Source: Ulva prolifera (lineage: Eukaryota; Chlorophyta; Ulvophyceae; Ulvales; Ulvaceae). From it: DNA of 64,000 nucleotides. Both the position numbers and the translations under genes were made by a program. The stretch is taken from positions 7,603,361-7,667,360 of the forward strand of contig CM041200.1 in NCBI GenBank assembly GCA_023078555.1, given 5' to 3'. Within the stretch, counting starts at the first letter, position 1; the number at the start of each line of letters is the position of its first letter. The notes beneath the pieces are model-generated. The model was not told the origin of the DNA. It did not search any database and saw only the letters and a program-made list of their open reading frames with translations. This document shows, piece after piece, positions 6,180-64,000 of the stretch.

Positions 6180-7436
6180 TGGGTGTGCGTGTGGGTGTGC
6201 TTGTGGGTGTGTGTGGTCGTGTGTGTGGCTGTGTGGCCGTGGCCGGCGCGGGTGCTGGCGGTGCGTGGGTGTGTTGGTGTGTGCTGCGTGTGGCTTGTTG
6301 TGTGGTGTGCGGTTCCTCTGGTTGCTGCTTGCGGTGCTACCTGCCTTGCTTCCTTTGTCCTTGTAACACAAAACCACACAGCATCCACCACCTCAACGCC
6401 TGTCGCCGTGCGACAGGGCCGCGTCCAACACACCGCCCCCCGTGCCCGCCTATCCTGGCCGCCCGTTTGCCGGGGGCCGCCCCAGCCCCAAACCCCACTG
6501 TCCGTTGTGTAACTGACAAGCCACAGTGGTGCAGCGGACTGGGCAACACAACCTGTGCATAAAGAGCGGTATGATATCACTGATACCGCCGGTTTCACCA
6601 TGCCGGACACCTGCAAGGATATCCAAACGCTAGCTGCACCCAGCAAGGAGATATGCAGGCGCAACTGATGTCCATTGTTGTAGATACTAGCAGTACCGCT
6701 GGCGGAGGCGCTCTAGCTGGTGGTCGGTCGGAGGTGAGAACCCGTGTTCCTGCAGTGCTCTGCGAACAATGATGGCAGCCCGGCGCTCCCCCGAAGCCCC
6801 GGGGGCATCTGACTGCGCTCCCGCCGATACGAAAAGGTGATCACCTTGCTTCGAAGCGAGGATGATCCAAACAGAACGCAGCCTGTTGCAGGCCACAGCC
6901 TCCATGCAGAGCCCCGGTGCGGATTTTGCCGTGCCCAGGTCGGGCACGGAGCGTGACGCATCAGTGCTGCCCAGGGCACCCCCCCTCGGGGCCGCCCCAC
7001 CCCCTCTGACAGCCGTTACGCCTCCGCGTCCCCGGGCGCTTCAAGTTGATCTGCGGGCTGCAGACGTCACCGCCGTATCAACTGTGGCGGACCTGCACAT
7101 TGCAGTGGCGCAGGGGGCGCTGGACATTGAGATCCGTGCCCACCTCGACCTCACACTCCGCCGTGACCGGTGATGTCATCGGAACAGTGCCGCGCTCCGC
7201 TGTAGATGACAAAGAAGACGATGTTGTTGAGGCGCGCAATGCCGCGACGGCGATTTGCCATCTGAATTACAACACCAGGTCGATACGGGTGCGGCCTATC
7301 GAATGTTGCTGTCTCTGCACCGTGCAATGACTTGTAGACACTCAAAGCTTGCTTGCTTCTGAAGACACGTGGTACCAAAGGCATGCTGCAGCGTAGCACA
7401 TGTGTACATGGAGTGTGATAGCATGTTTGCATCAGT

Positions 7437-7600
7437 ACAGTAAAGTAAAGCAAACCTCAACTTACGTATGCGCCCCGTTTTGCCAGATGCATGTCTGTCC
7501 TCGTAGCTTCAAATGAAATAACATCAACCATTCCAAGTCATCGCGACCACATCTCAAAGGGGCAACCACTTGGAACCCAAGGTGGGTTCCCCAACTTTCC
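7437..7600 (-). repeat. SINE-like repeat, partial copy (family 1)
   Basis: The segment begins with a GTAAAGTAAAG tail and contains a block (GACCACAT...AAGGGG...CCACTTGGAA) that aligns with the 17117-17385 SINE-like element. It lies in the A-B intron of RK1 and lacks the tRNA-like end. Boundaries are approximate. Confidence 0.45.
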
Positions 7601-10304
7601 TTGACACTAGTGTCAGCTGCCAGTGGCCGGAGGTTGATCTGTTGCTGTATATGTGCAGGGGAACTGCAGCGATCCACATGCAACACGGGCGCTACAGCTG
7701 CTGCCACCAGAGCCGGCGCACGCGCCATTCTTGCCGCTGCGGCCGTTCCAGTGCCTCCTCCTGGTGCCCCACGTAGACACAGTGCTCCTGCAGACGAGCG
7801 ACAGCCTGTGGTCGGACAACCTGTACCTCCGGCTGCACCCTGACGCCGGCTCCCAGTCGCTACCGCTGCTGACCTCGAAGAGCATGCCGACTTTCATCCG
7901 AGTCCGTACAAGCCGGACGGACCCTCACCTTCCGACAGACTACGCAACAGTCTCTGACGAAACGGACAGGCCGGAGCTGCATGCGACCGCGCTAACGATC
8001 CAGGGCCACAACCAGCTCAGCTGGCATGCTGTGCATGCTGTGGGCTCCACGACGAACCCCGCTGTCTTCCTTCATGGTACGTACGTGATCTACTTCTGCA
8101 TCTAGGATGAGTTGATGTGTTTGCTTGATCTGCCATACAAAGGCCCAGATTGTGTAAATTGAATTACTTTTACAACACAATCTCCTTAAGGAGATAGAAG
8201 CCAAATTTGGGTTGTTGCCCTCGTACTGTAGAGCAGGCCCAGCCCTAGAGGGCACCAAGGATCCATGTGCACACATGTACACTGCATGTCAGGCTGCAGG
8301 GAGGCTGTGTATGTTGCCGCACACGCCAGCGCCATTGACACTCATCTGCGCATCATCCATCCGTTGCATATGGACTCTGCTGCTGTGGTTCATGTGTGCG
8401 CTAGTGCAGACTGCGTCATCGATATCACAGACTGGGGCGGCGGGGCGCCGGCGGTGGCCGCCACCGGAGGATCGAGCGCGAGACTCACGGACACCGTATT
8501 CCACAACATGCGCCACCGCCCGGAGCTCGTCAACGTCTCCTTCAACGGCCTCTCGCCCCTACCGCAACGTCACACTCGCTCGAGCTGCCGGTGCTCCAAT
8601 AGGGCGTGTCGTGGGGACCGCCATGAACGATTACCGGCTGTCCCCATTAAACAGGAAATTCTCCTGGCAACGCTATGGTGTGTACTACCCTGACGACGAT
8701 GAGATCTATGGTGTGGAGGTGGAGGAGGTGCCGCCTGGGTCTGGCGGCGTGTTTGGCGCGGAATACACCATCGAAGACGTAGTCATGAGCGACTGCCTGT
8801 TTCAGCACGTTGACGGGCCCGCGCCGCTGCCGGGGTGCCCCCCGGCGTCTGTGAAGAAGCGGGAGTTGGTCAGAGCGCGCAGGCTCGACCCTAGAGCGGC
8901 CGGGGCCTTCGGGATCGACGACTCGCTGTATTATGATGACGAAGAGGAGGACATCGGGCCAGTCGGCGACGACCTTGTTGCGGATGTTCCGCGTGCATGG
9001 GATTATGAGCCCGTGTTGCCCGAGCCGCAGCGGCCGGAGTACGATTTTATCACTGCCCCTGCAGCTGCGCTGGCGCAGGAGGCCGTTTCTCCAGACGGCT
9101 CTAGCGGGCCTGCAGGCGATGAGATGACCGAGTTTCACGATGGCACGGGAGAGCGAGACGTGGCCGAGCGGCTAGACGACCTTCGACAGGAGGATCCCTG
9201 GTTTGCAGGTGTCCAGCTGGTGCGGTCTCATCTAAAGTACATGCACTTGTGTGCAAATATTCCTGTCAAGATATGTGAAGCGTACAGTGTTGCCACACAT
9301 AGCCGTCCGATTGGACCTCATGCATGCTCTGTGACCCACCGAGACCACTTTGCAGATATCTAAATATTTGACCATGCCCCAACGTATGTATGGGTGGGAA
9401 AAATTGCAAGCTAGGAACCAAATTTTAGTCGGGCACTTGAATAATTTTATGAATCAAGCGATCGTGTGAAGGCGTGTAAATGCGGGTGTAGGTTCTGCCG
9501 CCCCGCCCCCCACCACCACCTGGTTGCCCACAGTTCAGTGCCCCACCAGCACCGTCAGCAAACGGCACGGAAGCTGCAGCCCCCAGGCTTGTACAGCCAA
9601 TCTCACTCCAAGCTGTGCCAGTGGTTCCCGCGTCTTCCGCCAGCTCTACCAGCGACGCCATGTCATCGACCACCGGCGCCGTCGCGCTGACAGTGGCTGT
9701 TGTGCTGTGTGTTGCGGTGTGCACCTTGATGCTTTGCCTCGCTGCTGCGCATCGTCGGAAGAAAGCTGCGGTCACCGTGGCAACAGCAAAGACAGGCGCG
9801 GCAGTGCGCCATGCTGCCAGACTGCGGCGACTTGCTGCCGGCCCGGAGATACACCAGGCATCTGGCCTGACTCCAAGTGCCCGTATCCCGCAGTCGGCAA
9901 TGAACGCTGCCTTTGAGTACATGCTTCCAGCCCATGCTTGCGCTGACCATGAGAGGGCCGGTACTTGACGCTACGATACGTCCCGGTGGCCGTTGGGGGG
10001 GCCCCGCTCTTGAGCACCCACATGCAACAGGCGGTGCGGACGACGCCTCATCAGATCGCCACGGTATAACCAGCAAATCTGACATCATAACTCCCGGTCG
10101 CAGCAGCAACATGTCGACTACGAGCCTGCAGTGCCGGGCAATCACTGATGGCTGGAAAGAGAGCTGCGATGATACTTCGACCTCCGGCGGTACGAGCTTA
10201 CGGGCGGCGGCCGTGTCTGCACCGTTGCATGCCGGGGCAGCACAGGGGCGGCACAGGGGACGGCCGTCCTCACCTCCAGCACCGGAGGAGGCGGGGGGCA
10301 CGGT

Positions 10305-10591
10305 GTCAAGACGCGTGTTAGTCTCTTCGAGTGTGCACAGGGGTTAATGCGCGTGCCTGAGCTGGTAAGCATGCTGACTGTGCATGACGACGTGGAGGGG
10401 AGCGTACCTTGCCATCGCGTAAAGTCGCGTGGCAGAAATGAAAGTAAGAATTGAATCGGTGACCTCATGAGTACACACTACATGCTCTACCACTAGGGCT
10501 CACCTGAAGCAACGAGTCCTTTGTTAGATGACCCCTCGCTTGATTATGTCATCTATATTCTTGGATCCCCAGATATGGATATCCCACAACA
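10305..10591 (-). mobile_element. tRNA-derived SINE-like insertion in RK1 exon D
   Basis: Comparison with RK4 shows 287 extra bases between CACGGT (10299-10304) and a second CACGGT (10592-10597), which look like a 6-bp target-site duplication. On the minus strand the insert contains a tRNA-like stretch: TAGTGGTAGAGC resembles a D-arm/A-box and CGATTCAATTC a degenerate B-box. The insertion interrupts the cytoplasmic juxtamembrane coding sequence of RK1. Confidence 0.6.
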
Positions 10592-11039
10592 CACGGTCGT
10601 GTTATCCCCTTTTGGCGGCACGCAGCACAACACGCAGCCGAGCGAGCAGCACAGCACCCAGCACAGCACGCAGCACAGCACGAAAGTGATCGCAGCGGCG
10701 ACGTCACAGGCAGGCAGCGCTTGCGACACAAGGAGGCTAGGCTGCAAGGTGCAGGCAGCGCTCATGCCTGTGGGCGCGGGGACTCGTGCACCGACTTGCC
10801 CTAACCGGACGGAGGGTGCTTCTGCTGCGGCGCCAGTGGCTGTGGCGGCGCAGCAGCTGCAGAGGCTGCACCGGCAGCTGGACAGCTTTGGCGAGGAGGA
10901 TCTGTTCCTGGGGCGGTTTGAGCTGCTGGGGCGGCAGCACCGGCGCTGCGGAGGTGCGGCCTCGACTGTCGCTCCAAGATGGCGATGACTCCAACATGCG
11001 TGCACAGTATCGAGCTGTTCACTGCAGTGTGTGTCAAGT

Positions 11040-11290
11040 TGAATCAAACTGGGTTGGCCTGGCCATGTCCTTTTCCAATCGATTGTACAGTGACTACACA
11101 AGGTGCACCTTGCACCTTCACGTCACACAGGCCACTGGCATACATGGCATATGCCAAAGGGGCACACCGCGTCTCCCTCACGCGACCGTATGCAACTCAC
11201 AAGACTTCCTCATGTGCTGGATTTGACAGTCACATAAAGACGACTGCTTTGTATCCCCAAAGCGCATGCGGCATTGGCATCGTGAGCTGA
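11040..11290 (-). repeat. SINE-like repeat (family 1), diverged
   Basis: The segment shares ordered blocks with 17117-17385 (ATATGCC-AAGGGG, CGACCGTA-GCAACTCACA, CCCCAAAGCGCA). It lies in the D-E intron of RK1. Its tRNA-like end is too eroded to score. Confidence 0.5.
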
Positions 11291-11994
11291 TGCAAGAGGG
11301 GGCAGCGCGCAAATCAGACTAAAATTGTCATGTTCGCAAGGCATGCAGGTCAAGGCATCGTTCAGTTTGCAGAGGACAGGGATGACTGCGAGTTTGCAAT
11401 CAAGTTCTTCCTTGACTGGGACGCCTTCCTCACCGAGACCGCCCTCTACACTGCAGCCTTCCCCCACCTCTGCAGCACCGCTTCCCCGGAAGTCGCAGCC
11501 CGCATCCACATAAATTCTGTCACGAGCACGGTTGATCCCTCAGAAGCCGCTCCGATGGCGGAGGCTGTTGCGCGGTTTCTGCCGCAGGTGGAGGCGGTGT
11601 GCGACGGCGCGGCGGGGGGCCTGGAAGACCCCCGCGGGCGGCCGCTGCCGCCATGCATTGTGATGGAGCGGGGGGATAGCCTGCACGACTGGAGTGACCG
11701 GGCGGAGCCGGACCTCTTCACGGCCCTCGCGGTGCGTGGCTTGCAATTGCTTGTCACAGTGGTACAGCTGATTTCTGCCTTTGCAGAAAGCACCCGGGTC
11801 GGCCCTGAGACACTGTCATGGTGACTGTGGGCTGCACTGCGTGTTTGGTGTTCAAACACCAAATTGGGACCGTTTGCGTGGTCCGCGACTCCTGGCTCTG
11901 GATAACTAACACAATTGTGAGGCACAGACAGCCCAACAACGAATGAGAGTGGTTTCAATCACGCCATTGTGTGGCATACCTTCACATCTTGAGG

Positions 11995-12394
11995 TGTTAC
12001 AAGGACAAAGGCAGCAAGGTGGGCAGCACCGCAAAAGTAGCAAGCAGACGAAGCAAACACCAAGACACCCACGCACATCTCACCCATCACCGGCGCAGCA
12101 AGCGACACAGATGCGCAGACCGCCAAGCACACACCCACACACCAGCACACACACGCACAGACCCCACGGCTTACACACAACAACACAACCGCCAACACCA
12201 CAACGCCTACCGCCGTACGACAGGGCCGCGCCCAACACGCTGCTGCCTGAGGCCGCCCATCATGGCCGCCCGATCGCCGGGGGCCGCCCTAGCCCCAAAC
12301 CCCACCCCCACCCCCCGAGCCACAGCACACCACGCCAGCCCGGCACACCGCCGCGCAGCCTCGCCGGCCCACGCCGCACCGCACCCAGGACAAC
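11995..12394 (-). mobile_element. LINE family A tail, 400 bp, with 11-bp TSD
   Basis: The minus-strand 3' end is at 11995 (TGTTACAAGGACAAAG on +). The element is flanked by ACATCTTGAGG at 11984-11994 and 12395-12405. It is a 5'-truncated 3' UTR copy in the E-F intron of RK1. Confidence 0.8.
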
Positions 12395-13043
12395 ACATCT
12401 TGAGGTGTACTAGAATCCAGCGATGACAAGGGATCTGTTTCCTATGGAATACGTACATATGAAAGCAGCCTGCTGTAGGTGCTGTCCAACATCTCGCTGC
12501 GACTCGCAGACATACATGACGCCGGCTACGTGCACCGGGACCTCAAGCCTGCCAACATCATGTGGCTGCCGCGGCAGAACCGGTCATAGACTTTGGCTGC
12601 ATGGCCCGTGTCGGCGCGGACGCGCCCCTGAGCTTCATGCTCGCGTACGCCGCCCCGGAGGTTGCTGCGGCTCTGCAGCAGAGGCGGCGCACCATAGCGT
12701 CAACTCCGGCATTGGACGCGTGGTCGATGGGAGTCATTGCGTACGAACTACTTACCGGCGCCCCTGCGCATGCGTTCGACCTCATTGCTGGCGGTGCTGC
12801 CCAGGTGTGCTGGCCTCTCTTGTGTCTAGATCTATACATGGACGCACATAGCAGTGTTGGATCGCTTTGCAGCATTTCCGGGGCTGCCATCCAGAAATTA
12901 TACCTATATATTCGGCATTGTTCTATGTAGTTTGGCCCGATGACCCAACACTGGCACATAGTAGTCGTATATCTCACTAGAAATTGCTGCTTGTTGCACG
13001 TGTACTCAGCAGTTTTGCCGCTCAGTGCCTATACAGTGGTGAC

Positions 13044-13605
13044 GGTGGTTGCTGCTCGCCCGCGCGGCCTCGTCTGCTTTGTGGCGGTGGCGGCAGCTGC
13101 CTTCAGTTGCTGTGCCGTTCGCCGGAATGGCCGGCCTTGCGCTCGGCATACCGCGACGTTGGCACCGACGTAGCCATGCGTCGACGTATGGCCCGCCTTC
13201 GGAGCACGGCAGGGGGGGTGCGGGGAGGTAGGGCAAGGGTTTGGGATAGGGGGTGTGGCTGTACAGGTGAGCGGGGAGGGGTAGGGGTGGGGGGCTGCTG
13301 ATTGACGGGGTGGGGTTTGCTGGGACCTCCTCGGGGTTGTCTCTGTATTTTTGGCTTTGCGCCCTGTGCTGCATGTATACATGCCTTCGGGAGTCCGGGG
13401 CCGGGCTGTGGGGCGGGGTGCGTGTGGGGGTGGGCGCGCGAGTGTGATTGTGGGTATGGGGGCCTGTGTGTGTCTGGCTGCGGCCAGGGCGGGTGCTGTC
13501 GTGTGCGGTTGCATGGGGTGTGCTGCGTGTTGATGGTTGTGTGGGTGTGGTGCCCCTGTTTGTGACCTGCTGTGCTACCTGCCTAGCTGGTTTTTTCCGT
13601 GTATC
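13044..13605 (+). mobile_element. LINE family A tail, 562 bp, diverged
   Basis: GTG-rich 3' UTR sequence ends near 13605 in a degenerate terminus (GTGCTACCTGCC...CCGTGTATC). Flanks ACAGTGGTGAC (13033-13043) and ACGGTGGTGAC (13606-13616) form an 11-bp duplication with one mismatch. It lies in the F-G intron of RK1. Confidence 0.65.
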
Positions 13606-14160
13606 ACGGTGGTGACATCCAGCGTGGTGATCACCTCAATATCTGGTGAGAGTATGCCGTACTAAGCACAGATCGGCTTCACACTGCCACCTGGACTGAA
13701 TGCCATGATCCTTTATTCAAGTTCACTCACCCACACACAGCAATGCATGCGCAAAGGCGCAAAGCTGTAGCTGCACATCCCGGGGGTTTGCTTTCGTTGA
13801 GCAATACAGCTCAGAGGCGCCCTGCGTCTGAACTTGGAGCCTGCTGTTCGTCTGACCTCGGTTCATCAGGACTTTCTGTGACTTTGCACACACTGTGCAG
13901 GTGATGGAGATGCTGGTGGGGCAACAGCCACTGCCGTGGGCGGAGGGCCTCAGCACGCACGCATGGCGCAAGCTCAGGGCACTGCGGCGGCCGGTGCTGC
14001 AGCTGCTGCAGCGCGACCCCGCCTGCCGCGGCTCGCCACGCTCCTTCCACGCCGCCTGCACGACCGTTTTCAACAGCCGGACCACCATTGAGTGCTGAAT
14101 GCTAGAAGTGTAGCACATCCCTCCCGCAACAGCACTTGACACCCCACGCCTGTGATCATC

Positions 14161-15275: not shown

Positions 15276-15277
15276 AG

Positions 15278-15321
15278 CCCCCCCCCCCCCCCCCCCCCCT
15301 CCCCCCCCCCCGCCCCCCCCG
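15278..15321. repeat. Poly-C tract
   Basis: Twenty-two C, a T, then further C runs broken by single G. Length is probably unstable. Confidence 0.85.
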
Positions 15322-21673: not shown

Positions 21674-21950
21674 GAGGATGGTACGCATGTTTGTGTGTGT
21701 CGCGGGCATGCACCGGTTTGTTGCGCGAGCAGCACAGCTGCACCAACATAGGCCTATGTAGGGAAGGCAGAGGGCAGTCGTTCCGCCAGGCGGCGTCGGT
21801 GTAGAGCGTTCGGAAGATGCGCTGCCAGTGTCGCGCACAATGCAGTCTAGATCCCATGGCCAGTCCTCGGGCTGCCAATCTGGTGGGAGAGGAATGTTCT
21901 GCGAAGCATCAGTTTACACATACATACATACCATGTTCTCTTATGTGCAG

Positions 21951-26078: not shown

Positions 26079-26114
<36 letters not shown>

Positions 26115-40690: not shown

Positions 40691-40726
<36 letters not shown>

Positions 40727-42585: not shown

Positions 42586-42596
42586 GATGTCGCCTG

Positions 42597-52354: not shown

Positions 52355-55300
52355 TATAGTTACAAAAGAGTGAACGGGAGAAAACAAACACTGAAACCGA
52401 ATCTCATCCGAATCAAATGCAACATACACTCACACACACACGAACACTACAACCGCACTCACAACTCAGTCCGGCAGGATCGCGTCCTCCAGGCCCGCAT
52501 CATATCGCAACCCTTGCTCCCGAGAGATGACAAGCCCAGACTTCCGATACATATCCGCATTGCCGCGCTGCAATGACACCGACAACACCCGCAGCGCCCA
52601 CTGGACAAACGCGCCTTTGGAGATGCGCCCACTGGCAGCGGCCACATCCCCCAACTGACCGACGAACCTCACGGCAGCCTTGCCCATGAAGCCACACGAT
52701 TTGACCGCAAACGGAACAAACCGGAACGCGGCATGGTCAGGCACGTCCCGCCGGAAGCGGTCCCGCTTCCTGTCCTCCGCCCGCTCCGCCGTCGCACCCG
52801 TCTCCCGCGCCGCAGCGGCCACGTATGAGGCCGCCGGCGCATGCGTGACCACGACGTCCACGGCCGCCATCTCCAGGCGCGGCATGACCACGACGACGTC
52901 CCCGCGGCGATTCAGCTCAACACCCGCGCCCCTCGCGAGGGCACGGTAGAGCGGCTCCAGGGCAGACTGCAGTCCGGCGTAAGCGGCGACCAGGCGCAAG
53001 GCACGAGCCAGGTTATCATGGCGCATCTGGGTCTCCTTTGCCACCTTCTTGCAGACCATGGCGTGGTCTGGTTCGGCGGCAACACCTGCACTGCATTTGC
53101 ACGGAGGGGGGGGGACGTCCGTCGGGACGCGGAATCGCAGGCGGTGCCACACCGCCAGGACAAACATGTCGTCGCCCATGGTGAGAACGCCGCCCGGCAG
53201 AGCGGAGAGGAAGGCGCCTGCAGGCCCCCCCGAAGCGCTCCTGAGCCACGCCGCTTCCCGCCTGCCGGCCGGCGTGTCGAGGTCGATGCCCTGTAGCACG
53301 AGTGAGGCCGCATGGTCCGCGACCGCGCGCCCCACCTCGCGCTGGGCCGCTAGCAGCTTGCCCGAGACGAACGCGTCCGGCAGGTCACGGGCATCCGCCT
53401 CCCACCCCAGCAGCTCATGCAGCTCGTCGAACAAGCCTTGCCAGCGCTGCAACAGACTGCCCCGGCTGTGGCCGCGGAGGGGGCGGAGCAGGTCCGGGCA
53501 GCCGGCGAGGTTGCGCTCAGCCGTGCCGGCCCCCGACAGGAAAGCCGCGTCAGCGACGCTGTCCACCAGCATCGTCAGTCCGAGCCCGCCATGCCTGACA
53601 GGGGACATCAGCCGGTAAGCAAGCCGCCGCGTCTCAGCGTCAGTGGCCGAGTTGTCAGTCGCGGCAGCAGCATCCGCAACCTCAGGCGGCAGGCACAGGA
53701 TTGCGGCGGCACCGCGCCACACAGCGGCCTCCGCCCTGCGCATGTGCGGCTCGAGCACGGCATACGGCACCGTCCGCATCAGGTGCGTCATGCGCACACT
53801 CAGGGACACACGCAGCAGGAGGAACTGCGCCTGCACTGAGAGCGGGATGCGCACGAGGGTCTCGACGAGGCCCTCGACCTCGCGCGCCCGCGCGTCCAGC
53901 ACCTCGGCGACGTACTCCGGGGTGCCCAGCGGCGTGCCGACAGCCTTGAAGCCCGCGTGCAGATCCCGAATGCCGAGCTCTGCGGCCACGCCGGCCGCCG
54001 CCTCGGCGTCGGCGCTGTGGACGCCGCATTTTGCCGGGTTCACCTCAAGCCCAATGCTGCGCACGCCGTCAGCTTCCACGCACAGCCGCCGGAACACGGC
54101 AGCTCCAGCCGCGAGGTCGCCCGCAATGCTGATGTCGTCCAGGTACGCCACCACAGGTGCGCCGGCGCCTGACGCGTCGACGCGCTCCAAGACAGGCTGC
54201 AGGGTCAACGCAAACAGGAGGGGGCCCAGGGGGTCACCTTGGCGGACGCCACGTTGGTAGAGGACCGGCTCGACGTCCTCCGGAGCGCCCGCGATGTGCA
54301 GCGGGGTCCCGGCGCCGTACGCCCACTGCGTGAAGGGCAGCAGCGCCGGGGCACGCTCCTTCACGGCAGCGAACATGGCCGCGCGGTCGATGCAGTTGAA
54401 GGCGTTCTTCATGTCGACCGAGAACACCGAAGCGCCCTCGGCCAGAGCAGAAGACAGGCCGTGCACGACTGTCTCGGTCCCGCCCCGTGTGCCAACGCCG
54501 ACCTGCAGCGGCGCCAGGCTCTCTCCGATGTCGCGGCCGTACTCGCGCAGGGCGCACACTGCCGCGAACCGGTACCAGGTCTCCCCCACCGCGATCGGCC
54601 GCGTGCCACCGTCCGGCTTCTCCAGGCCGATGAGGAGCCCGTCCAGCAGGAACGTCTCCCGTGGCAGCATGCCGGACAGCATGTGGTTGACGACCGCCAG
54701 CAGCGCGTCGGTGGCTGCGTCCGAGGATTGGCATGCTGCGCAGATCATCTCGAACGTCCAGCCGGACGGGCCGGCCGACGACCCCCGATGGTGTGCGCTC
54801 ACGGCGGCCACCGCCGCCACCAGCGCCTCCCGTGTCAGGCACAGAGCGGGGACATCCGGGTTCGGCTCCAGAGGGACCGGCGGATCTGCTGGCGGGAACA
54901 ATGCGCGCAGACCGGCTTGGACCTCCGGGGACCGTGCATCTGCGGGCTTGCCATCCTGCAATCCGCGGCCAGCTTTGTGAATGGAGCGCTTGATGCGAAA
55001 GCATCTGTCGATGTGTTGCGCCCGCAGCTGATCTGCAGACATGGGAGCTTTGCGCCTCCCGGGCCAGCGGCCGGGCGGCGTTTCCTCCCACATCTCCACG
55101 GGCAGCCCGAGGGCGTAGTCGCGGCACCGCCCTGCCGCCGCTTTCCCAGAGCGCCGCCCCCTGCTGTACGCTAGCAGGCGCATGGGCAGGCGCATGAGCT
55201 CCTCGAAAGCGGCAACAACCTCCTCTCGCGCGCTGTCGCCGCGCGCATGCGTGCACGCGTCGGCCACCAGCTCCCACACCCTGGTGCACGACTCGGCCCA

Positions 55301-56182
55301 CCCCAGCCGGGCGGCTGGGGGGACATGCTGCGGCAGGCGCAGCCGTGGGGCCGCGTTGGCCCGCTGCACTGGCGGGGCAGATGCAGCCGCACGGAGCCCG
55401 GCCTGTCTGCGGGGGCCCGCCCGCTGCGACTGGCTACCTGCTCCCCGTCCCTTGCCTTTCTTCTTACCTCCCCGCCGGGCACGTTGCTGCTTGGCGTTGC
55501 CGCCCGTGCCCCCACTGGCCTGCGCAGGGGGGGGTGCGCCGGCGGCTGCTGCGGCTTGGCGATGCGGCCGGCGGGTAGCAGACTGCTTGGCTGCTGCGCC
55601 TGCGAGGCCAGGAGGCGGGGGAAGGGGCGGGGAAGGGGTGTCGGCGGAGGCGGGCGGGGGTGGATGGTGGCACTGTGCACTGCCGTGAGCCCTGTCGTGC
55701 TGGTCGTTACTGGTGGCTGGCGGCTGCTGAGGGGCAGCCGTGGCGAGCTGAGTCTCACCAGGCACCACATTCAGCGCCGATTTTACCTGTTTGCTTGTAT
55801 CTGCAGAGAGATGAGCCTCGGTAGCTGTCCCGCTGGCAGGTGCTGCGCGCCGGCGCTTGGGCTGTGGAGACCCGCGCGGTGACTCGCGCTGCACGACTGC
55901 GAGCTGTCCATTGTTGCAGTTAACAACTTCATTAGTATCTAGGATGCTACGTTGGTCTGTAATCAATAGGCTAGGTCGCACGGGCGACTGCGAAGCGTGC
56001 TGGCGGTTCAGGTCGCTCAGCTTTGCCTTTGACGGCTCCTTCCGCTTCGGCTTGCCCATGGGACCCTAGCATTGCAGATATGGCCTAACAAGTATTATCA
56101 AATGCCAAGCGCCGAGCCTCCGGGGGCTCGACTGCCATGCCGTGGACGAGGTCAATCGACACGACCAACAACAATCGACCCC
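52355..56182 (-). mobile_element. LINE family B, full-length copy (3.8 kb)
   Basis: GTTACAGCAAGT at 52343-52354 and 56183-56194 is a perfect 12-bp target-site duplication. The minus-strand element has a short 5' UTR (56060-56182), one long open frame (52466-56059) and a 3' UTR of about 110 bp ending CTCTTTTGTAAC, with no poly-A. Its last 412 bp recur almost unchanged at 57108-57519, which suggests recent activity. Confidence 0.9.
52466..56059 (-). CDS. LINE reverse transcriptase with zinc finger and restriction-like endonuclease
   Basis: The frame is 1,197 codons and starts MGKPKRKEPSKAK. A basic, Ala/Pro-rich N-terminal region (to about residue 330) precedes the reverse transcriptase. RT motifs: GGTRPIAVGE, FSVDMKNAFN (about 544-553), RQGDPLGPLLF (about 605) and YLDD (639-642). 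The thumb follows with GTPLGTP. Next is a C-x-C...H-x4-C zinc knuckle followed by RHDNL (about 985-1017), then a C-terminal module with VDVVVTHAP (about 1066), AEDRKRDRF and FVPFAVKSCGF. I see no APE-type endonuclease domain. This layout matches LINEs that cut with a restriction-like endonuclease. In this copy the residue before SCGF is Lys, while the truncated copy at 57108 has Glu, as do the family A modules (SHET). The frame is intact, but cleavage activity may be impaired. Confidence 0.85.
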   Translation of the reverse strand: MGKPKRKEPSKAKLSDLNRQHASQSPVRPSLLITDQRSILDTNEVVNCNNGQLAVVQRESPRGSPQPKRRRAAPASGTATEAHLSADTSKQVKSALNVVPGETQLATAAPQQPPATSNDQHDRAHGSAQCHHPPPPASADTPSPPLPPPPGLAGAAAKQSATRRPHRQAAAAAGAPPPAQASGGTGGNAKQQRARRGGKKKGKGRGAGSQSQRAGPRRQAGLRAAASAPPVQRANAAPRLRLPQHVPPAARLGWAESCTRVWELVADACTHARGDSAREEVVAAFEELMRLPMRLLAYSRGRRSGKAAAGRCRDYALGLPVEMWEETPPGRWPGRRKAPMSADQLRAQHIDRCFRIKRSIHKAGRGLQDGKPADARSPEVQAGLRALFPPADPPVPLEPNPDVPALCLTREALVAAVAAVSAHHRGSSAGPSGWTFEMICAACQSSDAATDALLAVVNHMLSGMLPRETFLLDGLLIGLEKPDGGTRPIAVGETWYRFAAVCALREYGRDIGESLAPLQVGVGTRGGTETVVHGLSSALAEGASVFSVDMKNAFNCIDRAAMFAAVKERAPALLPFTQWAYGAGTPLHIAGAPEDVEPVLYQRGVRQGDPLGPLLFALTLQPVLERVDASGAGAPVVAYLDDISIAGDLAAGAAVFRRLCVEADGVRSIGLEVNPAKCGVHSADAEAAAGVAAELGIRDLHAGFKAVGTPLGTPEYVAEVLDARAREVEGLVETLVRIPLSVQAQFLLLRVSLSVRMTHLMRTVPYAVLEPHMRRAEAAVWRGAAAILCLPPEVADAAAATDNSATDAETRRLAYRLMSPVRHGGLGLTMLVDSVADAAFLSGAGTAERNLAGCPDLLRPLRGHSRGSLLQRWQGLFDELHELLGWEADARDLPDAFVSGKLLAAQREVGRAVADHAASLVLQGIDLDTPAGRREAAWLRSASGGPAGAFLSALPGGVLTMGDDMFVLAVWHRLRFRVPTDVPPPPCKCSAGVAAEPDHAMVCKKVAKETQMRHDNLARALRLVAAYAGLQSALEPLYRALARGAGVELNRRGDVVVVMPRLEMAAVDVVVTHAPAASYVAAAARETGATAERAEDRKRDRFRRDVPDHAAFRFVPFAVKSCGFMGKAAVRFVGQLGDVAAASGRISKGAFVQWALRVLSVSLQRGNADMYRKSGLVISREQGLRYDAGLEDAILPD

Positions 56183-56375
56183 GTTACAGCAAGTACGAAC
56201 ACTGGACTTTCGTATACCGCATGTGCATGTCGCTGCGGCAGGGTGCCTCCGTTTGCCTATCTCGAGAAAACTCAATTATGCTGCCTTTGCCTGGAAACGC
56301 ATGGACTAATTTTCAGTCACGTCAAGTACTTTTCGGATGGCCCGGCAGGTACATTTGGCAGTGACTCACTTCGGA

Positions 56376-56497
56376 GTGTGGTTGTTGTGGTCGTGTGTGT
56401 GTGAGTGTGTGTTGATGTTGCTGCGGATGCGATTCGGTTTCAGTGTTTGTTTTCTCCCGTTCACTCTTTTGTAAAGAATGACTTCGGAAGTCGTGAT
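56376..56497 (+). mobile_element. LINE family B 3' UTR fragment
   Basis: About 95 bp ending CACTCTTTTGTAA matches the family B 3' UTR. Imperfect repeats ACTTCGGAGT and ACTTCGGAAGT on either side may be the eroded target duplication. Confidence 0.6.
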
Positions 56498-56636
56498 CGG
56501 TCCACGGTGGTCATCTGTGGCACCTGTCTATCATGTATTCGAGTGGGCGTCGCTATGTGTCCCGATGCCGTCGCTGGCGACACAGTATTTGTCATGGAAC
56601 GTGTCAGCCTGAGACCAGCCGCATCGCTTTGTGCAG

Positions 56637-57040
56637 GTAGGCCACGATTTCTGCCGTAAATACTATCCGCTTCGCGGGGAATTTCGCGACCAGGCACGGG
56701 CCCTGGCGGCTCTTCTTTTACAAAAGAGTGAACGGGAGAAAACAAACACTGAAACCGGGCCCTGGCGGCTGTCTGCTCCGTAGACGCGAACAAGGCCAAG
56801 GTTGATCGGGTGGTGACGATATTGACAGACGACGCGAATAAGTACGTGATCAAGACAGTCTACACTTTGTTGGCGAAAGCGGTGCAGGTGCTTAACCGTG
56901 TTCGGATCCGTGCTCACAAGCCTGCGTGCATGTCAGCGGTCGACACGGCCACCGCGCGCCGTATAACGGATCGTTTGATGTATGATCCGTGCGCCGTTTC
57001 CGAGGATGTTTCCAGGACTCGCGGACACATCATCGAGTAG
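56637..57040 (+). pseudogene. Transposon-borne coding exon disrupted by a 44-bp LINE insertion
   Basis: After a TTGTGCAG acceptor the frame reads GHDFCRKYYPLRGEFRDQ and continues, past the LINE fragment at 56712-56755, as an Ala/Val-rich helical region (VVTILTDDANKYVIKTVY) to a TAG at 57038-57040. The insert plus its 15-bp duplication adds 59 nt and shifts the frame. No family is recognised. It may be a further exon of the gene at 51966 or the start of the gene at 57845. Confidence 0.45.
56712..56755 (-). mobile_element. LINE family B micro-insertion, 44 bp
   Basis: Thirty-eight bases of the family B 3' end (complement of GGTTTCAG...TTTTGTAA), plus about six extra bases, lie between two copies of CGGGCCCTGGCGGCT (56697-56711 and 56756-56770), a perfect 15-bp target duplication. 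Confidence 0.9.
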
Positions 57041-57107
57041 TTCGTGAAGTCATGATCAGAACAGTCACATATGCCAGTTTGCATGCGCATATCTAAGCTT
57101 GCATGCA

Positions 57108-57519
57108 GGAAGCGGGACCGCTTCCGGCGGGACGTGCCTGACCATGCCGCGTTCCGGTTTGTTCCGTTTGCGGTCGAATCGTGTGGCTTCATGGGCAAGG
57201 CTGCCGTGAGGTTCGTCGGTCAGTTGGGGGATGTGGCCGCTGCCAGTGGGCGCATCTCCAAAGGCGCGTTTGTCCAGTGGGCGCTGCGGGTGTTGTCGGT
57301 GTCATTGCAGCGCGGCAATGCGGATATGTATCGGAAGTCTGGGCTTGTCATCTCTCGGGAGCAAGGGTTGCGATATGATGCGGGCCTGGAGGACGCGATC
57401 CTGCCGGACTGAGTTGTGAGTGCGGTTGTAGTGTTCGTGTGTGTGTGAGTGTATGTTGCATTTGATTCGGATGAGATTCGGTTTCAGTGTTTGTTTTCTC
57501 CCGTTCACTCTTTTGTAAC
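57108..57519 (+). mobile_element. LINE family B, 5'-truncated copy, 412 bp
   Basis: The copy carries the last roughly 100 codons of the LINE B frame (KRDRFRRDVPDHAAF...DAILPD, stop near 57412) and the whole 3' UTR. AGCTTGCATGCA at 57096-57107 and 57520-57531 is a perfect 12-bp duplication. It is almost identical to the full-length copy. Confidence 0.9.
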
Positions 57520-57844
57520 AGCTTGCATGCACACTGGTGACGACCGCATGCAGCCGGTGGTGATGAGAGCGGCCCGACACTTGAAAGACAGAACGTCAGT
57601 GCCAGTTCCATGTGCATATCGTGCTGAAAAGGCCGATCGCCTGACTAGCCTGTGGACAGAGCATACGCCGCATGTCCGTAACACACTCTAGTGGCCACCG
57701 GGACATCAGGATGGTATACCATCCTAAGGCCCTAGTAGCCACTGTATCCTGTCAACTGGGTTACTGCGCCGAAACTTCTTACAGCATGCAGCACATGCAT
57801 ATGATCATCGATGACAAACCACATCACGGTGACTATGCTACCAG

Positions 57845-60145
57845 GAGGTGGCCAGCAAGGAGGATTTCGGAGATGAACGTCCATCAGAGCGTGAGGTATT
57901 GCATGCGACAATGCAATTTCTAGAGAGCTACAACCAGACAAACAACGATGTACAAAAGATGATGGGGAATGAGCGCATGGGGAAGATACGTGACAATCTA
58001 TCCAACGACGGGGGAAAGAAAGACGTGGCCCCTATCATGGCCAACCGCATCCATGAATATACCAATCAGGTACTCTCCTCTTGCATGCTGCCATTAGCTG
58101 CCGAAGGGAAAGGTGAGTTGGTGCCCCTGTGGCAAACATCAAACGAAGGAGTGCAGATGTACGGTGTAGGGCAGCTGAAAATTCTTCATTTCATACAATC
58201 GGTATTGGTGCATGCCTAGACAGATAGACAGGAGGGCAGCTTCCATTACGTTTGACAGCATCCACACTTATGTCAATGCAGTGTGTTTTCCACTCAGGTC
58301 CTCTTCGACAGGCATGGCCTGGCATCGACCGCTGCCGTAAAGAAGACACGGCGGGCCTGGATGTGTGAGGGGGTGCTACCATGCGACATGACCCACATTC
58401 ACCTAGCCAGAGCAGCGCTATCCAGCAGCCAGGTGTGGAACCACCATGTACGCATATACACTAGAATCTACCTGACGATCAAGCGTTCTTTCGGCTTTTG
58501 AGTATTGACATGGCGCCATGCGGCTTGACCATTGTTCAGCTATGCATGCCTGTCATAGTGCCACGACCCCGCCACACGACAAATTGTAGGGCTATGTCCA
58601 CAATCACATCTTGCCTATTAACATCGGTGGATCCTGGCCTGCATGTAGGGGCCAACTGGTGGGACCACACGTGCCAGCCACTCCACGGTACAGAATATGG
58701 CCATGTGCACGCCTGAGCAGCTCGGGCACTGTAAATCAGCCAACCACACATCACAGGTGTGCTTGTCGGTGTAGCTACTATAGGCTGGGCGGCTTGTGTG
58801 TGTTTGTGGGTGTGTTTGGTCATGTGCGTGGCTGTGTGGATGTGGCCGGCACAGGTGCTGACATTGCGTGGGTGTGGGTGTGTGCTGCTTGTGGTTTGTT
58901 GCATGGTGTGCGGTTCCCCTGGTTGCTGCTCGCGGTGCTACCTGCCTTGCTTGCTTTTTCCTTGTAGCACATCACAGGTAGAAACTGGTTGGTGCGGTCT
59001 TATGCATCTGCTCCATATGCACCAACTGGAGATTTGTCAAACGGCAAGCAATGGTGTGGGTGTAACGGAATGTGATTGCCACACTGCAGGCTATCGGGCC
59101 TCCGGACAAAAACATCAGAGTCGATGACAGCACCACTGGATCCGTCTGTGTGGTGCCCCCGCCAGTGCGAGCAGAACAGGTGAGGTGTCCGATAGCGCGA
59201 TGATCTGTGTGCATGCAAGTAGCACTTCCTATAATGAGCATGGGCTCCGCAATTTATGCGGATGACAGAGGTGCTTGCAGGAGCCGCTAGGAGATGCCAG
59301 CAACACATGGGCAGCTGCTATAGCCGGGCCAATTGTAGGCACCAGGCAGGGTCCAAACAAAAGCCGTCGCCGCAATGATCTCGATGTGACATTGCCATTG
59401 CGTCCAGTACGCCCCTCCAAAGGTTGTGATACCTGTTTCTGCAGTAGCAAGTATACATACGTCACATGTACACGTATGTGAATCTACAGGAACTTTTATT
59501 GACAGAAGCTACTGATGAGCTCAGGCAGCTGAATGCCACGGACGAGGACGGCATAGATGATGCTGATCTTGGCAAGGTCATCCGACGCAAGAGGCTCCTA
59601 TCGGTATGATTCATTTGCAAAAACGTAGCTGTGCAGGCTGACGCATGGGCAATGTGAACGTTGCAATTGGTGGACTAGGTTTCAATATCTTACTGCCTAG
59701 ATTATGCTTGCAAAGGCTGCGTGGCCCCTTTTGAACACCGCCAAGCTTCAGTACTTCTGTCTAGAGACCAGAAGCACGCATCGTTCCATTTCCAACACGC
59801 AGTTCTGTTGGTGTCCTGCCTGCGTTGGCGAAGTAAGCTGTCGCACATCATTTGTAGTGATGCCTCTCATCAGTGATATGATGCTTTGGCCTGCAGGAAA
59901 CAATCAAAGAATTCGAGAGGTGCATGTCAACTCTCACGACCAAGCTGAAGACACTGGTGAGCCAAGCACAAGGAGATGACGACGAAATCCAGGGCGACGT
60001 TGATATGCAGTGCGAAGAGGCAGAGAGGAGCATGCACATCATCATTGAGACCACATACGAGAGAGTGATGGTGCCAGGCAAGATGGCAGCTCTGCTGAAT
60101 GATGTCACTGACTGCCTGCGCTCAGCAGGCCAACCGGTGGAGTGA
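57845..60145 (+). CDS. Multi-exon accessory gene of the CACTA element
   Basis: Exons with good GT-AG borders: 57845-58201, 58298-58432, 59090-59179, 59281 to about 59410-59420 (donor uncertain), 59490-59603, 59701-59832 and 59897-60145 (TGA at 60143-60145). Most are multiples of three, so phase 0 is kept. The predicted protein begins with a charged helical region (LESYNQTNNDVQKMMGNERM), has a TRRAWMCEG segment, an SRRRND basic stretch, a Cys-rich CWCPACVGE, and ends in acidic coiled-coil-like helices (ETIKEFERCMSTLTTKLKTL). I recognise no known domain. Its position downstream of the transposase resembles the second gene carried by many CACTA elements, which can encode a DNA-binding accessory protein; that role is an inference. 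A LINE A tail lies in the intron between exons 2 and 3. The upstream start is not established. Confidence 0.5.
58760..58969 (+). mobile_element. LINE family A tail, 210 bp, with 10-bp TSD
   Basis: GTG-rich 3' UTR ends TTTCCTTGTAGCA. CATCACAGGT at 58750-58759 and 58970-58979 flanks it. It is inserted in an intron of the transposon accessory gene. Confidence 0.85.
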
Positions 60146-60529
60146 GTGTGAGATAGCAGCAAATGGCAGTGGGTGGTTGTTTGACTTTATTTGATAGCCA
60201 TGAACAGGATTTGCATAGCTTCTGAATCATGTAAGTGACCGTACCGGTGACACAATGTTTCTCGAGAACAGCATGCTGTGGTGTGTCGTGGAATGTGGGT
60301 AGCACACATCACCTAGTTAATGCGCGAGAGCTTCTGTTCATGGGGTAAGCACACACTACAGCTTGTAGGTACACCAATTGTATAGCAGAATCCGGCACAG
60401 CTGTTTGCATTCGTCTGTCAAAGGCATTGCGTGTGCATGGTCAACGCCATGTTGCGGAACAAGCGCCTGTGATGATAGTGTCCGGTTGCGATATTTCTCT
60501 TGGCTCGCAACAAGCTCAATACCACAGCC

Positions 60530-60803
60530 GTGGCCCGTGGAGCAAGCGTCGCAAAGGACTCATTACTTCATCACAAGCATGACTGGTTCACTTGTAGGGC
60601 CTTCACAGATCCGCAGCTACTCCTTAGATTATCCTTATTGTACACCATGTGCCTAGCCCAGATGTTGTGGCCAGCGGTGCAAGCATCCCCAGGGACCCAC
60701 TAGCTGGTCACAAGCGGATCACTAAGACGGACCATCACAAACCCACAGATACTCCTTAGGTTATCCTTCACGATAAAGACTGTGCGATGGGGTTCTAAGG
60801 ACC
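60530..60803 (+). repeat. Subterminal tandem repeat, 137-bp period
   Basis: Two diverged units begin GTGGCCCGTGGAGCAAGCG (60530) and GTGGCCAGCGGTGCAAGCA (60667). Both later contain a CTCCTTAGRTTATCCTT block. Repeats just inside the ends are common in CACTA elements, where they bind the accessory protein. Confidence 0.5.
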
Positions 60804-60997
60804 GGCAGGGGACTCCCTGCAACATCATATGCTAAGGATGTGTCATCCGTGCTCTTACGAGGACCCCAATCCATCACTACTAGGTCCTCCAGGCTTCATC
60901 AACAACTCATTATACGGTCGTACGCGAGCTCCTAGTGACCTGATGAGGACTGTGTAGAGACTGTGTAACCCCCTGTTTAATGAGTGTTCAATCGTGC

Positions 60998-61005
60998 TAG
61001 TGGGA
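60998..61005. other. CACTA right terminus (TAGTG) and GGA target duplication
   Basis: TAGTG at 60998-61002 is the complement of the CACTA terminus, followed by the duplicated host triplet GGA. Homology to RK3 resumes at 61003. Confidence 0.75.
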
Positions 61006-64000
61006 GGATCCCCGCGGGCGGCCGCTGCCGCCATGCATCGTGATGGAGCGGGGGGAGAGCCTGCACGACTGTAGTGACCGAGCCCTCTTTATGGCGCTTG
61101 CGGTGTGTTGTTGCCTCGCGCTTGCATGTCCCAGCGCACTGCTACGCCTCGCCCTTGCAGCCATCACCATGTGCTCTCACACGCGGGTCGGCCTTGAGGG
61201 ACTGGCGGAGAAACACATGGCACCTGTACAGAATTTGTAACTGCAGTGTCTGGCAGTGCTGTGCGTGTCCACCCCCATGGTCACTTTGATGTCGTTCTGC
61301 TCTGCTAGCGCTTGTGATGTGAATTAAAAAGAGCCATGACATGTGTGACTTGTACAAGTCGATAACGTAGTTCATGCGGAGCTGATCGATCATGATATCG
61401 GCTCCACTGAGCTGCATACGGTGACGTTTCAAGGTTCCCCACACCCAGCGATGATCAGTGCAGAGTCATCACACTGCTTCAGGTGCTGTCCAACATATCG
61501 CTCCGCCTCGCGGACATGCACGATGGCGGCTACGTGCACCGCAACCTCAAGCCCGCCAACGTACGCGTCATGTGGCTGCCGCGGCAGAACCGCTGGACGG
61601 TCATCGACTTTGGCTGCATGGCCCGCATTGGCGAGGACGCACCCCTGAGCTTCTCTCTCGCGTATGCTGCGCCGGAGGTTGCAGCGGCCCTGCAGCAGCA
61701 GCGGCACAGCATCGAGTCGACTCCGGCACTTGATGCCTGGTCGCTGGGGGTGATGGCGTATGAACTGCTCACTGGCGCCCCAGCCTTTGACCTCATTTCT
61801 GGCGGCTCTGCCAAGGTGTGCTGCAGTTGCTTCCTCATTGCAGAGAGGCAAATTCTGTTTCAGAGAAGATGGCAACTTGCTCCTACATATCGATGCCAGC
61901 ATCGCCAACACATCGCTTGAATCCGCGGGGGTGGCCACCTGGACTGCATGTCGTTCTTCTACTAGATAGTACCAGCTGTGCGCACTTGGCCGTTCGGCAT
62001 TGCCTGCCAGTGGTCTTGACGCTGTCTTACGTCTTCCGGAGATTAAGATAAAATTCTCCTCAGCTGTACTACTATATTGCATATAGCTATAGTATACAGC
62101 GCTAGCTCAGCCACTGCTGTGAGTGAGGCTGCCACTCGAGTAGCACAGTATATGCATCCCATCCTCATCTTTGACTTTCTACCCTCCTGGGTCTACGCTT
62201 GTGGCTGCTCAGGATTTCTGTAGGCTTCAATCGCCTCAACAAGGTTCAGCCACATTCCACCCTGTGACAGGTGCATGCAGAGCCGCTCTCGAAGTGCCAT
62301 GATTCTCATCATGGAATCTGCTGATCACCTGCCTTGAGTCATTTGGGCGCTGCTTGAGTTGGCAGAGGCTGCAGGTGATTGAGATGCTGGTGTCGCTACA
62401 ACCACTGCCGTGGGAAGGCGAGCTCAACACTGACGTGCGGCGGAAGCTCGGGCCACTGCGGCGGCCGGTGCTGCAGCTGCTGCAGCGCGAGCCAGCTTGC
62501 CGCGGCTCACCACGCTCCTTCCACGCCGCCTGCACGACCGTTTTCAACAGCCGGACCACCATCGAGTGCTGAATGCTAGTAGCGTAGCACAGCTCGCCCG
62601 CGACAGCGCTGGAGCCCCTCCGGCTCTGGGCGCATGGCGATCAGCTGGGACATCATGTTCAGTTTCGAAATGGCCATGGCCCAGGCCGGGGGGCAGAGGA
62701 CGCCGTCAAGGTTCCGAGATGACCCTGCGAGGGGCTGGCCGGGACGATGGACAGTGGCGACACCGAGCAGCGACCCTGAGAGCCTCGAGGACCGGGTGGT
62801 GTAAGCGCTTCTGCGCCATTTCAATGACACTATAGGAGGGTCCTGTGTGCTGTGCACTCCGCGACGAGGGTCTGACTTTTCAGACAGATGGGAATTTCAA
62901 GCCACCCCTCACCCATCTGCAGGGCCACGGCCACGCTGCGGCGTTCGCGTGCTCCCCTTCCGCGCCCCACCCCGACCTCTCACGGCAACGAGAACCCCTC
63001 GAAGGCCGTGGCCGCTGCACCACACGCCGGCGGATATCAGGCCTTCCAGCTGCTGACCGCACCCCGTGCCAGTCACAGCACACGAGGAGCCCAACCGCAT
63101 GTGATGCTGTGCTGCAAGTCAAAACGGGGCGGGGGGGGATGCGGGGGGCTTTGCACAGACCCGCTGACTGCTGAGCGGGGAGCTCCTCGAGGGGTCTTCG
63201 GGCAGGGCTGTGTGTGGTGGTGTGCACGACTTTTTCGGCGCGTGGGTGTCTGCGCTTGCGGTGCGGAGTTCTCCTGGGTGGCGCCTGGTAATTTTGAGTG
63301 GCTGTGGTGGCATACTGTGATTCTGTGGTGGGTGGCAGATGAGATGTGGCATGGCTGTGCACCTGCGCGTTGTTGGTGCGCGGCACCACCGAAGCTCCAC
63401 CGCCGTGTCTGCAATACACAGCCACCCGTATTGTGTCGGCGGCCGTGTGTGTGGTACCAGCACCGACACCAATGTCAGTGTTGTACATGTTCGGTGCCTA
63501 CGCGATTCTTGAGGCCCGGGTTGATGTTCACTTGCGGTGCGGCTGTGCTTTTGCTGCTGTGCTACATGTTTGACATGTACAAGGCTGTTCTACTGCTGCG
63601 CTGCGTGTGTCGGGAGGTCAAAGGCGAGGAGGCAGGTTCCACCGCAGAATTCGTTTAAACGCCCGGCTGCTCGAAAACAAGTAGCACTCAGCCTGCACAA
63701 CACATGTGCACCCAAGCCACAGCCAGCACCCTCTTGAAAGGGGCGTCCAGCCGCGGAGGTACAGCTCCAGAACCGAGCAAACCAAAACGCCCCCAACATG
63801 GTTGGTGTTGTGCAGGCCTGAGTACCCACAAAGCGCGTTTCACTTGAGCTGTATGCTCGCCTGCAGTGCTACCTATCATAGTTTGAACTTGTGATTAACA
63901 TTGGTGCGGCAGTTGCTCGCATGGGCAGGTCCTTATGACAGTGCCTCTGGTGTTTCGTGGTCTGATGTAGCAATTGTCATTGTTGTCGGTGTTGATGGTG
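61003..64000 (+). repeat. Segmental duplication, copy 2, right part
   Basis: Near-identical to 25562-28530: the rest of exon E, exons F and G, and the 3' flank. The match is still running at the window end, including the start of the retroelement insert at 63901 (as at 28432). Confidence 0.9.
62634..62804 (+). other. Small reading frame downstream of RK5, prematurely stopped
   Basis: This is the counterpart of the 77-codon frame after RK3. It starts at the same ATG and keeps the PSSDP segment, but TCA has become TAA at 62802-62804, leaving 56 codons. Confidence 0.3.

What the first reader, a model, noticed from the sequence alone, without database searches (positions are those of the whole stretch)
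6904..62572. Tandem family of kinases with a predicted beta-helix ectodomain
Five loci share one exon plan that joins a roughly 430-residue repetitive extracellular-looking region (DCIF-DWGG, ITDTVF, VDVSFNGLV-F-NV) to a membrane helix and a complete Ser/Thr kinase. I know of no named receptor-kinase class with this architecture. Exon borders fall between domains, and one copy (RK4) is fully intact. This is the best candidate for an undescribed system in the window: a clustered, fast-evolving receptor family that could serve recognition of walls, partners or microbes.
Basis: partly seen in the sequence, partly recalled or inferred. Interest (0 to 1): 0.72.

Follow-up and report, generated by a model that had tools for sequence, protein, structure and literature searches.

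The report
Algal receptor kinases with coil-repeat ectodomain
A stretch of chromosome from a photosynthetic eukaryote (probably a green alga) carries part of a large clustered family of membrane receptor kinases whose outside half looks like a beta-helix sensor, a receptor class for which I found no description; most of the copies in this window are broken, but unbroken sisters lie next door.

Summary
Five loci carry exons of one gene plan: three ectodomain exons, a transmembrane/juxtamembrane exon and three Ser/Thr kinase exons. Only RK4 has all seven open. RK1, RK3 and RK5 have frame breaks, RK2 lacks the kinase and runs into RK3, and RK5 is split by 11.9 kb containing a LINE. In the held 88.9-Mb genome this ectodomain occurs 43 times, 38 within 1.26 Mb of one contig; 38 of 43 have a same-strand kinase exon within 7 kb downstream, so the halves form one gene. 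But it has a significant repeat of about 25 residues, and a coil matrix learned from PF13229 beta-helix sequences of the same genome ranks those same coils first. Two further ectodomain subtypes sit on the same kinase; 60 of 106 kinase loci counted (some broken) have one. Best reading: a clustered receptor-kinase class with beta-helix-like sensors, ligand unknown. Pairwise dN/dS shows constraint and no sign of positive selection.

The parts
34239..34643 (+). RK4 exon A (N-terminal part of ectodomain, from the first Met of the open frame; signal-peptide exon not located)
35780..36179 (+). RK4 exon B (ectodomain, GNCSDPDA...)
36846..37609 (+). RK4 exon C (ectodomain coils DCIFTDW / ITDSVFRN / VQFRNVTL, acidic tail)
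38612..39797 (+). RK4 exon D (Pro-rich stalk, TM helix at about 38729-38785, juxtamembrane)
39941..40323 (+). RK4 exon E (kinase N-lobe, FAIKFF)
40649..40975 (+). RK4 exon F (HRDLKP, DFG, APE); PF00069 E 2.1e-19
41588..41785 (+). RK4 exon G (end of kinase C-lobe, stop)
6862..14095 (+). RK1: exons A-G recognisable; A short, frame breaks in C, D and F
17531..21666 (+). RK2: exons A-D only, no kinase exons; RK3 exon B follows 282 bases on
21948..27104 (+). RK3: exons B-G, no A; frame breaks in C and D, stop in G
44164..49083 (+). RK5 5' part: exons A-D and first part of E (frame breaks in C, D, E)
61004..62569 (+). RK5 3' part: rest of E, F (HRN in place of HRD), G
49084..61003 (.). 11.9-kb interruption of RK5 exon E, containing a LINE-type reverse transcriptase ORF (52466-56065, minus)

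Best explanation
The locus is a slice of a tandem array of type-I membrane receptor Ser/Thr kinases. Shown from sequence: an ectodomain, one transmembrane helix, a juxtamembrane region with motifs common to the five models (SAMNxx[FY]EYxLP; G[GS]T[VI]V[LV]xP[FY]D; FGxxxxxLGR[FY]ExLGR), and a kinase with all catalytic motifs form one intron-interrupted gene; the ectodomain contains coils of about 25 residues of the kind found in beta-helix proteins of the same genome. Predicted: two modelled paralogs begin with a signal peptide. Inferred: the ectodomain is a right-handed beta-helix solenoid held on a Pro-rich stalk that binds an extracellular ligand (most likely a glycan or wall/surface component, given what such solenoids usually bind; recalled), binding clusters receptors, and the kinases then phosphorylate one another and downstream targets. 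The array grows and decays by duplication: four of five window copies are broken, RK4 and several neighbours are constrained genes, and the kinase exons look younger or more homogenised than the ectodomain exons.
For: One gene: 38 of 43 C5-type ectodomain copies have a same-strand kinase exon F within 7 kb downstream, 37 distinct kinases because RK2 and RK3 share one; C7-type 19 of 19 loci, C1-type 4 of 9. By chance about 0.004 per copy at the genome average and about 0.09 at the density of the C5 cluster (41 exons in 1.54 Mb, my arithmetic). Open models of 1145-1258 aa with GT-AG introns for RK4, K7, K8, K9, K10 (K7 and K10 lack a located start). Strongest hydrophobic segment (19-residue mean 2.66-2.87) at the TM in 5 of 5, basic residues behind it. 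Coils: internal repeat of the 14-sequence profile, 0 of 300 column permutations reach the top-five sum for windows of 10 and 12, 2 of 300 for 15; a coil matrix learned from PF13229-type sequences gives the same five windows as top five, sum 22.8 against -24.7 sd 5.0 for permutations, 0 of 2000, reversed -26.6; single sequences: 13 of 14 ectodomains z 3.0 to 5.8, K10 z 0.9, kinase halves (5 of 5) z -1.0 to 0.1, juxtamembrane (5 of 5) -0.5 to 1.9, LINE segments (3 of 3) -0.5 to 0. Constraint: dN/dS 0.09-0.72 over nine chosen pairs.
Against: No fold prediction could be run. No Pfam model (best of the five 0.11, unrelated) and no PDB sequence (best E 0.4, unrelated) matches the ectodomain. hhalign: 5 of 60 and 4 of 60 shuffles of two beta-helix sequences score as high. 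Hydrophobicity autocorrelation at lags 18-30 P 0.52. Coil tests: the matrix comes from one genome; the five windows had been seen before it was built, though it was learned without them; column permutation also destroys ordinary strand patterning; for I kept 23 of the 30 sites; of the three sequences whose windows were printed there, RK4 shows all five coils, K8 only three. No transcripts. RK4 lacks a located signal-peptide exon. K7's first exon lies 14.7 kb before the next and may not belong to it. Ligand, partners and activity untested.
Confidence: 0.72

Rival explanations
1. Receptor kinases whose ectodomain is a beta-rich repeat other than a right-handed beta-helix (for example a lectin-like fold or another solenoid). 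Function as in the best explanation.
For: No profile links the ectodomain to any beta-helix family; hhalign not significant.
Against: Five coils, four of them spaced 25-29 residues, match a matrix learned from PF13229 sequences, 13 of 14 sequences positive.
Confidence: 0.18
2. Chance neighbours: the A-C exons encode a separate secreted protein and E-G a soluble kinase.
For: RK2 exists without kinase exons of its own; 5 of 43 ectodomain copies have no kinase exon within 7 kb.
Against: 38 of 43 paired at 2.6-6.9 kb on the same strand, far above even the local chance of about 0.09; compatible splice sites throughout; in K8-K10 one exon holds both the end of the ectodomain and the TM. RK5 is explained by its interruption.
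Confidence: 0.03
3. The window array is mostly a graveyard: a decaying end of the family without present function, RK4 included.
For: RK1, RK2, RK3 and RK5 are broken; RK4 has no located signal peptide.
Against: RK4's seven exons are open with all kinase motifs; dN/dS RK4 against K7 0.17-0.37; K7-K10 open within the next 200 kb.
Confidence: 0.15

Closest known systems
Plant receptor-like kinases (RLK/Pelle; e.g. LRR-RLK, CrRLK1L/FERONIA, WAK)
   Same: Predicted signal peptide (K8, K9), ectodomain, single TM, juxtamembrane, Ser/Thr kinase; tandem expansion.
   Different: No LRR, malectin, lectin, LysM or WAK model in the Pfam scans; kinase matches PF00069 better than PF07714 (RK4 1.9e-20 against 2e-7); of 963 PDB sequences matched by the K9 kinase the 60 shown include none named as an RLK/Pelle kinase. 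No tree was built.
Right-handed beta-helix proteins (Pfam PF13229 Beta_helix; the roughly 24-residue PbH1 repeat is recalled)
   Same: Coil motif at about 25-residue spacing picked out by a matrix from PF13229 sequences.
   Different: Below Pfam detection; fewer, more diverged coils; fused to TM and kinase.
Brown-algal LRR receptor kinases (PMC8307928, passages seen)
   Same: An algal receptor-kinase family described there as independently evolved.
   Different: Ectodomain there is LRR; no LRR model matches here.
Green-algal (Trebouxia) kinase families named LRR receptor-like, chitin elicitor receptor or cysteine-rich receptor-like (PMC11523091, passages seen)
   Same: Receptor-kinase-like families that gain and lose genes in green algae.
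   Different: Named there by protein match; no ectodomain of the present kind is mentioned in the passages seen, and the sequences were not compared.
Bacterial PknA/PknB-type membrane Ser/Thr kinases
   Same: Best PDB sequence matches of the K9 kinase (PknA, E 1.9e-12); membrane receptor design (recalled).
   Different: There the kinase comes first and the outer part last (recalled); here the reverse, with six or seven introns. The similarity is that of a distant kinase.

Membership tests
Receptor-like kinase (architecture) | Signal peptide, ectodomain, one TM, cytosolic kinase in one gene | tested here: met
   By gene model and hydropathy in K8 and K9; K7, K10 and RK4 without located signal peptide; pairing 38 of 43. 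No transcript or topology experiment
Receptor-like kinase (architecture) | Catalytic motifs VAIK, HRD, DFG, APE | tested here: met
   5 of 5 models; RK5 in the window has HRN
Plant RLK/Pelle kinase family | Kinase domain falls in the RLK/Pelle clade | tested here: inconclusive
   Pfam and the PDB matches shown do not point to it; no tree built
Plant RLK/Pelle kinase family | A known RLK ectodomain (LRR, malectin, lectin, LysM, WAK) | tested here: not met
   No such Pfam match
Beta-helix (pectin-lyase-like) superfamily | Match to a beta-helix profile or to a solved structure by sequence | tested here: not met
   hhalign not significant
Beta-helix (pectin-lyase-like) superfamily | Repeated coils of about 22-26 residues with the beta-helix motif | tested here: met
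   (13 of 14 sequences); a plain hydrophobicity test was negative
Beta-helix (pectin-lyase-like) superfamily | Three-dimensional right-handed solenoid | not testable with these tools
   Structure prediction switched off

The most novel reading that the evidence does not exclude
This organism built a main receptor-kinase repertoire independently of the land-plant RLK/Pelle lineage: about 60 kinase loci carry one of three diverged beta-helix-like ectodomain subtypes, arranged in tandem clusters up to megabase scale where ectodomains diversify while kinase exons are homogenised. That is the layout expected of a surface recognition system for microbes, mates or non-self.
Probability: 0.3. Interest if true: 0.8.

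Novelty: new variant of a known kind. Interest (0 to 1): 0.56.

Why it matters
Receptor kinases are the standard surface sensors of land plants. [quoted passage not shown] A clustered family with about 60 kinase loci and a recognisable ectodomain design gives concrete genes to knock out, fold and test, and would be a receptor-kinase class using a solenoid other than LRR.

Tried and rejected
Profile, Pfam, PDB and NCBIfam searches of the ectodomain, diverged paralogs included: no match. hhalign against a beta-helix protein: first run E 0.065 against 0.71 for a LINE control; with the larger alignment not significant. Hydrophobicity periodicity: negative. A PF13229 hit 4.8 kb upstream of a C1 kinase looked like direct proof, and my notebook says so; on reading the locus the beta-helix frame ends 3.2 kb before the juxtamembrane exon with no TM seen between, so it may be a separate gene and I withdraw that note as evidence for the architecture. 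Its exon was still used, with the C2 protein, to learn the coil matrix. The notebook's 'about 55' C5 kinases is replaced by 43 counted, 41 of them in the cluster. Sex-locus idea: two RWP-RK genes, on C2 and C3, none on C5. Relatives elsewhere: viral contigs gave one kinase at 33% and no ectodomain; prokaryote genomes 39 kinases at 25-46%. Pherophorin search empty, but its control was silent too. Promoter scan upstream of RK4: nothing above chance.

Literature: ten searches, of which only held a term for the fold; what I saw were titles and abstract starts of at most 20 papers a search. None listed describes a receptor kinase with a beta-helix ectodomain; that is no proof of absence in print. 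PMC8307928, PMC6652019 and PMC11523091 were seen as passages, all others as listings; the Ulva mutabilis genome paper was not held.

Counts: of the 149 matches I used the 106 with E<=2.8e-18 and left out 43 weaker, mostly partial rows; that call scored 150 of 341 candidates, so it is a lower bound. The 106 include broken copies such as RK1 and three on C23 that may be assembly duplicates of C7. One search scored 53 of 53 candidates.
Full report
What is there. The window is contig C5:7603361-7667360 of an 88.9-Mb genome in 44 contigs. The genome holds light-harvesting genes (34 PF00504 matches), so it is a photosynthetic eukaryote; I take it for a green alga, which is inference. RK4 splices through six GT-AG introns into a 1220-aa protein.

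State of the five copies. RK4 is the only window copy with all seven exons open. RK1 has a short exon A and frame breaks in C, D and F. RK2 has exons A-D only and is followed 282 bases on by RK3 exon B; RK3 has no exon A, has frame breaks in C and D and a stop in G. The block 21674-25565 (end of RK2 through RK3 exon E) is 98.1% identical to 45173-49082 of RK5, and the next 3 kb are 93% identical to 61003-64000, but between those two stretches of RK5 lie 11.9 kb inside exon E; RK5 also reads HRN for HRD. The different identities either side leave open that more than a simple insertion took place. So the claim of five loci sharing one complete plan holds for the family, not for these five.

Downstream paralogs K8 and K9 start with a separate exon with a predicted signal peptide (MVFFRPHLPCLCLALLTLATAAVALAQ in K8), followed by a phase-0 intron; candidates precede K6 and K11. 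The judgement rests on hydropathy and a donor site. I found none upstream of RK4, so its start, and hence its full intactness, is open. In K8-K10 the TM lies at the end of exon C, in RK4-type copies in exon D. All five models have their strongest hydrophobic segment at the TM and basic residues after it. N-glycosylation sequons number 3-7 before the TM (1.8-3.0 expected) and 1-3 after it (1.2-1.8 expected), too few to prove topology. The K7 and K10 models lack a located start, and K7's first intron would be 14.7 kb.

One gene, one family. A query with K8 exon C found 43 matches at E<=1e-5 (53 of 53 candidates scored): 38 on C5 between 7.225 and 8.490 Mb, two on C10, one each on C4, C9 and C1. 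38 of 43 have a kinase exon F on the same strand 2.6-6.9 kb downstream, start to start. These are 37 distinct kinases, because RK2 pairs with RK3's. Chance is about 0.004 per copy at the genome average and about 0.09 at the density of the C5 cluster (arithmetic), still far below 38 of 43. Of the five without, one is RK5, explained by the interruption. Diverged kinases elsewhere carry a diverged ectodomain of the same order (L031, L034, L035). Queries with two of them gave 19 of 19 and 4 of 9 distinct loci with a kinase exon downstream; in all, 60 of the 106 kinase-F loci counted have one of the three ectodomain types. Some of the 60 are broken and two lie on the possible duplicate contig C23. 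The other 46 were not examined, apart from L032.

Is it a beta-helix? No Pfam, NCBIfam or PDB sequence matches, hhalign against two PF13229-type sequences is not significant, a hydrophobicity autocorrelation is not significant, and no structure could be predicted. Three tests speak for it. The 14-sequence profile repeats itself: five windows (TDLYLTDVTF, SSVLLRDCIF, ASASIVDTVF, GLVRFHNVSL, ADAVMSDCLF; the first four spaced 29, 25, 25) make up the leading off-diagonal matches, and the top-five sum exceeds all 300 column permutations for windows of 10 and 12 and 298 of 300 for 15. A 12-column matrix learned only from two PF13229-matching sequences of the same genome (the C2 protein at 256225 and the C1:7171709 exon) ranks these same five windows first, with a sum nine standard deviations above permutation (0 of 2000) and nothing similar in the reversed profile. 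Sequence by sequence, with 23 of the 30 matrix sites kept, 13 of 14 ectodomains pass (z 3.0-5.8; K10 fails at 0.9), while kinase halves, juxtamembrane regions and LINE segments do not. The permutations also remove ordinary strand patterning, and the windows were known before the matrix was made. I therefore hold a beta-helix-type solenoid likely, not shown.

Evolution. Over nine chosen pairs, pairwise dN/dS is 0.09-0.72 across exons where it could be computed; no sign of positive selection at this resolution (RK3-RK5 exon B has dN 0.01 with dS 0). Ectodomain exons differ more than kinase exon F in protein identity, and their dS is also higher: for RK4 against K7, dS falls from 1.45 (A) through 1.15, 0.56, 0.48, 0.23 to 0.11 (G). 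In all eight comparisons other than RK3-RK5, exon B has a higher dS than exons E and F; the fall is not smooth everywhere (K9-K10: exon C 0.57, F 0.63) and the pairs are not independent. Homogenisation of the kinase end by conversion or exchange is the simplest reading; codon bias was not excluded.

How it may work. Shown: a chain with one membrane segment and the catalytic motifs of an active kinase. Inferred: the coils bind an extracellular ligand, probably a glycan or surface polymer; clustering activates the kinase; the juxtamembrane motifs common to the models regulate or dock. Divergent outer halves on a conserved kinase fit a repertoire of recognition specificities feeding one pathway, but no ligand, partner or phenotype is known here.

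Place among known things. Architecture is that of a receptor-like kinase. The RK4 kinase matches PF00069 (1.9e-20) far better than PF07714 (2e-7), and the best of 963 PDB sequence matches of the K9 kinase, 60 of them shown, are bacterial PknA/PknB and assorted Ser/Thr kinases; membership in RLK/Pelle was not established and no known RLK ectodomain is present. Receptor-kinase-like families named by protein match are reported to gain and lose genes in the green alga Trebouxia (PMC11523091, passages); I could not compare them. I remember similar kinase sequences from other green algae, but this is recall and was not tested. The ten paper searches listed no such class. Hence: a new variant of a known kind. 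After the requested check I changed the chance estimate, the list of frame breaks and several qualifiers; the odds stand, because the pairing remains overwhelming at the local chance of 0.09.

Noticed in passing
G000:C2:134034-977212: A dense cluster of single-frame proteins, mostly about 850-1080 aa, matching PF13229 Beta_helix and not beside the kinase exons; one was read in full (L033, 1027 aa).
   Followed up: partly
G000:C7:556849-728250: Second cluster, 13 kinases counted, with another coil-type ectodomain subtype; part recurs on contig C23.
   Followed up: partly
window 52359-57519: LINE-type reverse transcriptase ORF (1199 aa, minus, PF00078 E 9e-11) flanked by 414-base inverted arms that are 99.8% identical, unusual for a LINE.
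   Followed up: no
window 50756-52373: Two open frames (291 and 145 aa) inside the RK5 interruption without a Pfam match and with at best a marginal PHROGs match (0.024, unknown function).
   Followed up: partly
window 4173-6392 (minus): Open frame of 739 aa that looks like the C-terminal part of a retrotransposon (Cys-rich knuckle read by eye) but has no Pfam match; part of it recurs at 29891-30188.
   Followed up: no
window 21674-25565 and 45173-49082: 98.1% identical 3.9-kb blocks carrying the same exon C frame break, so the copying (duplication or conversion) came after the gene was broken.
   Followed up: yes
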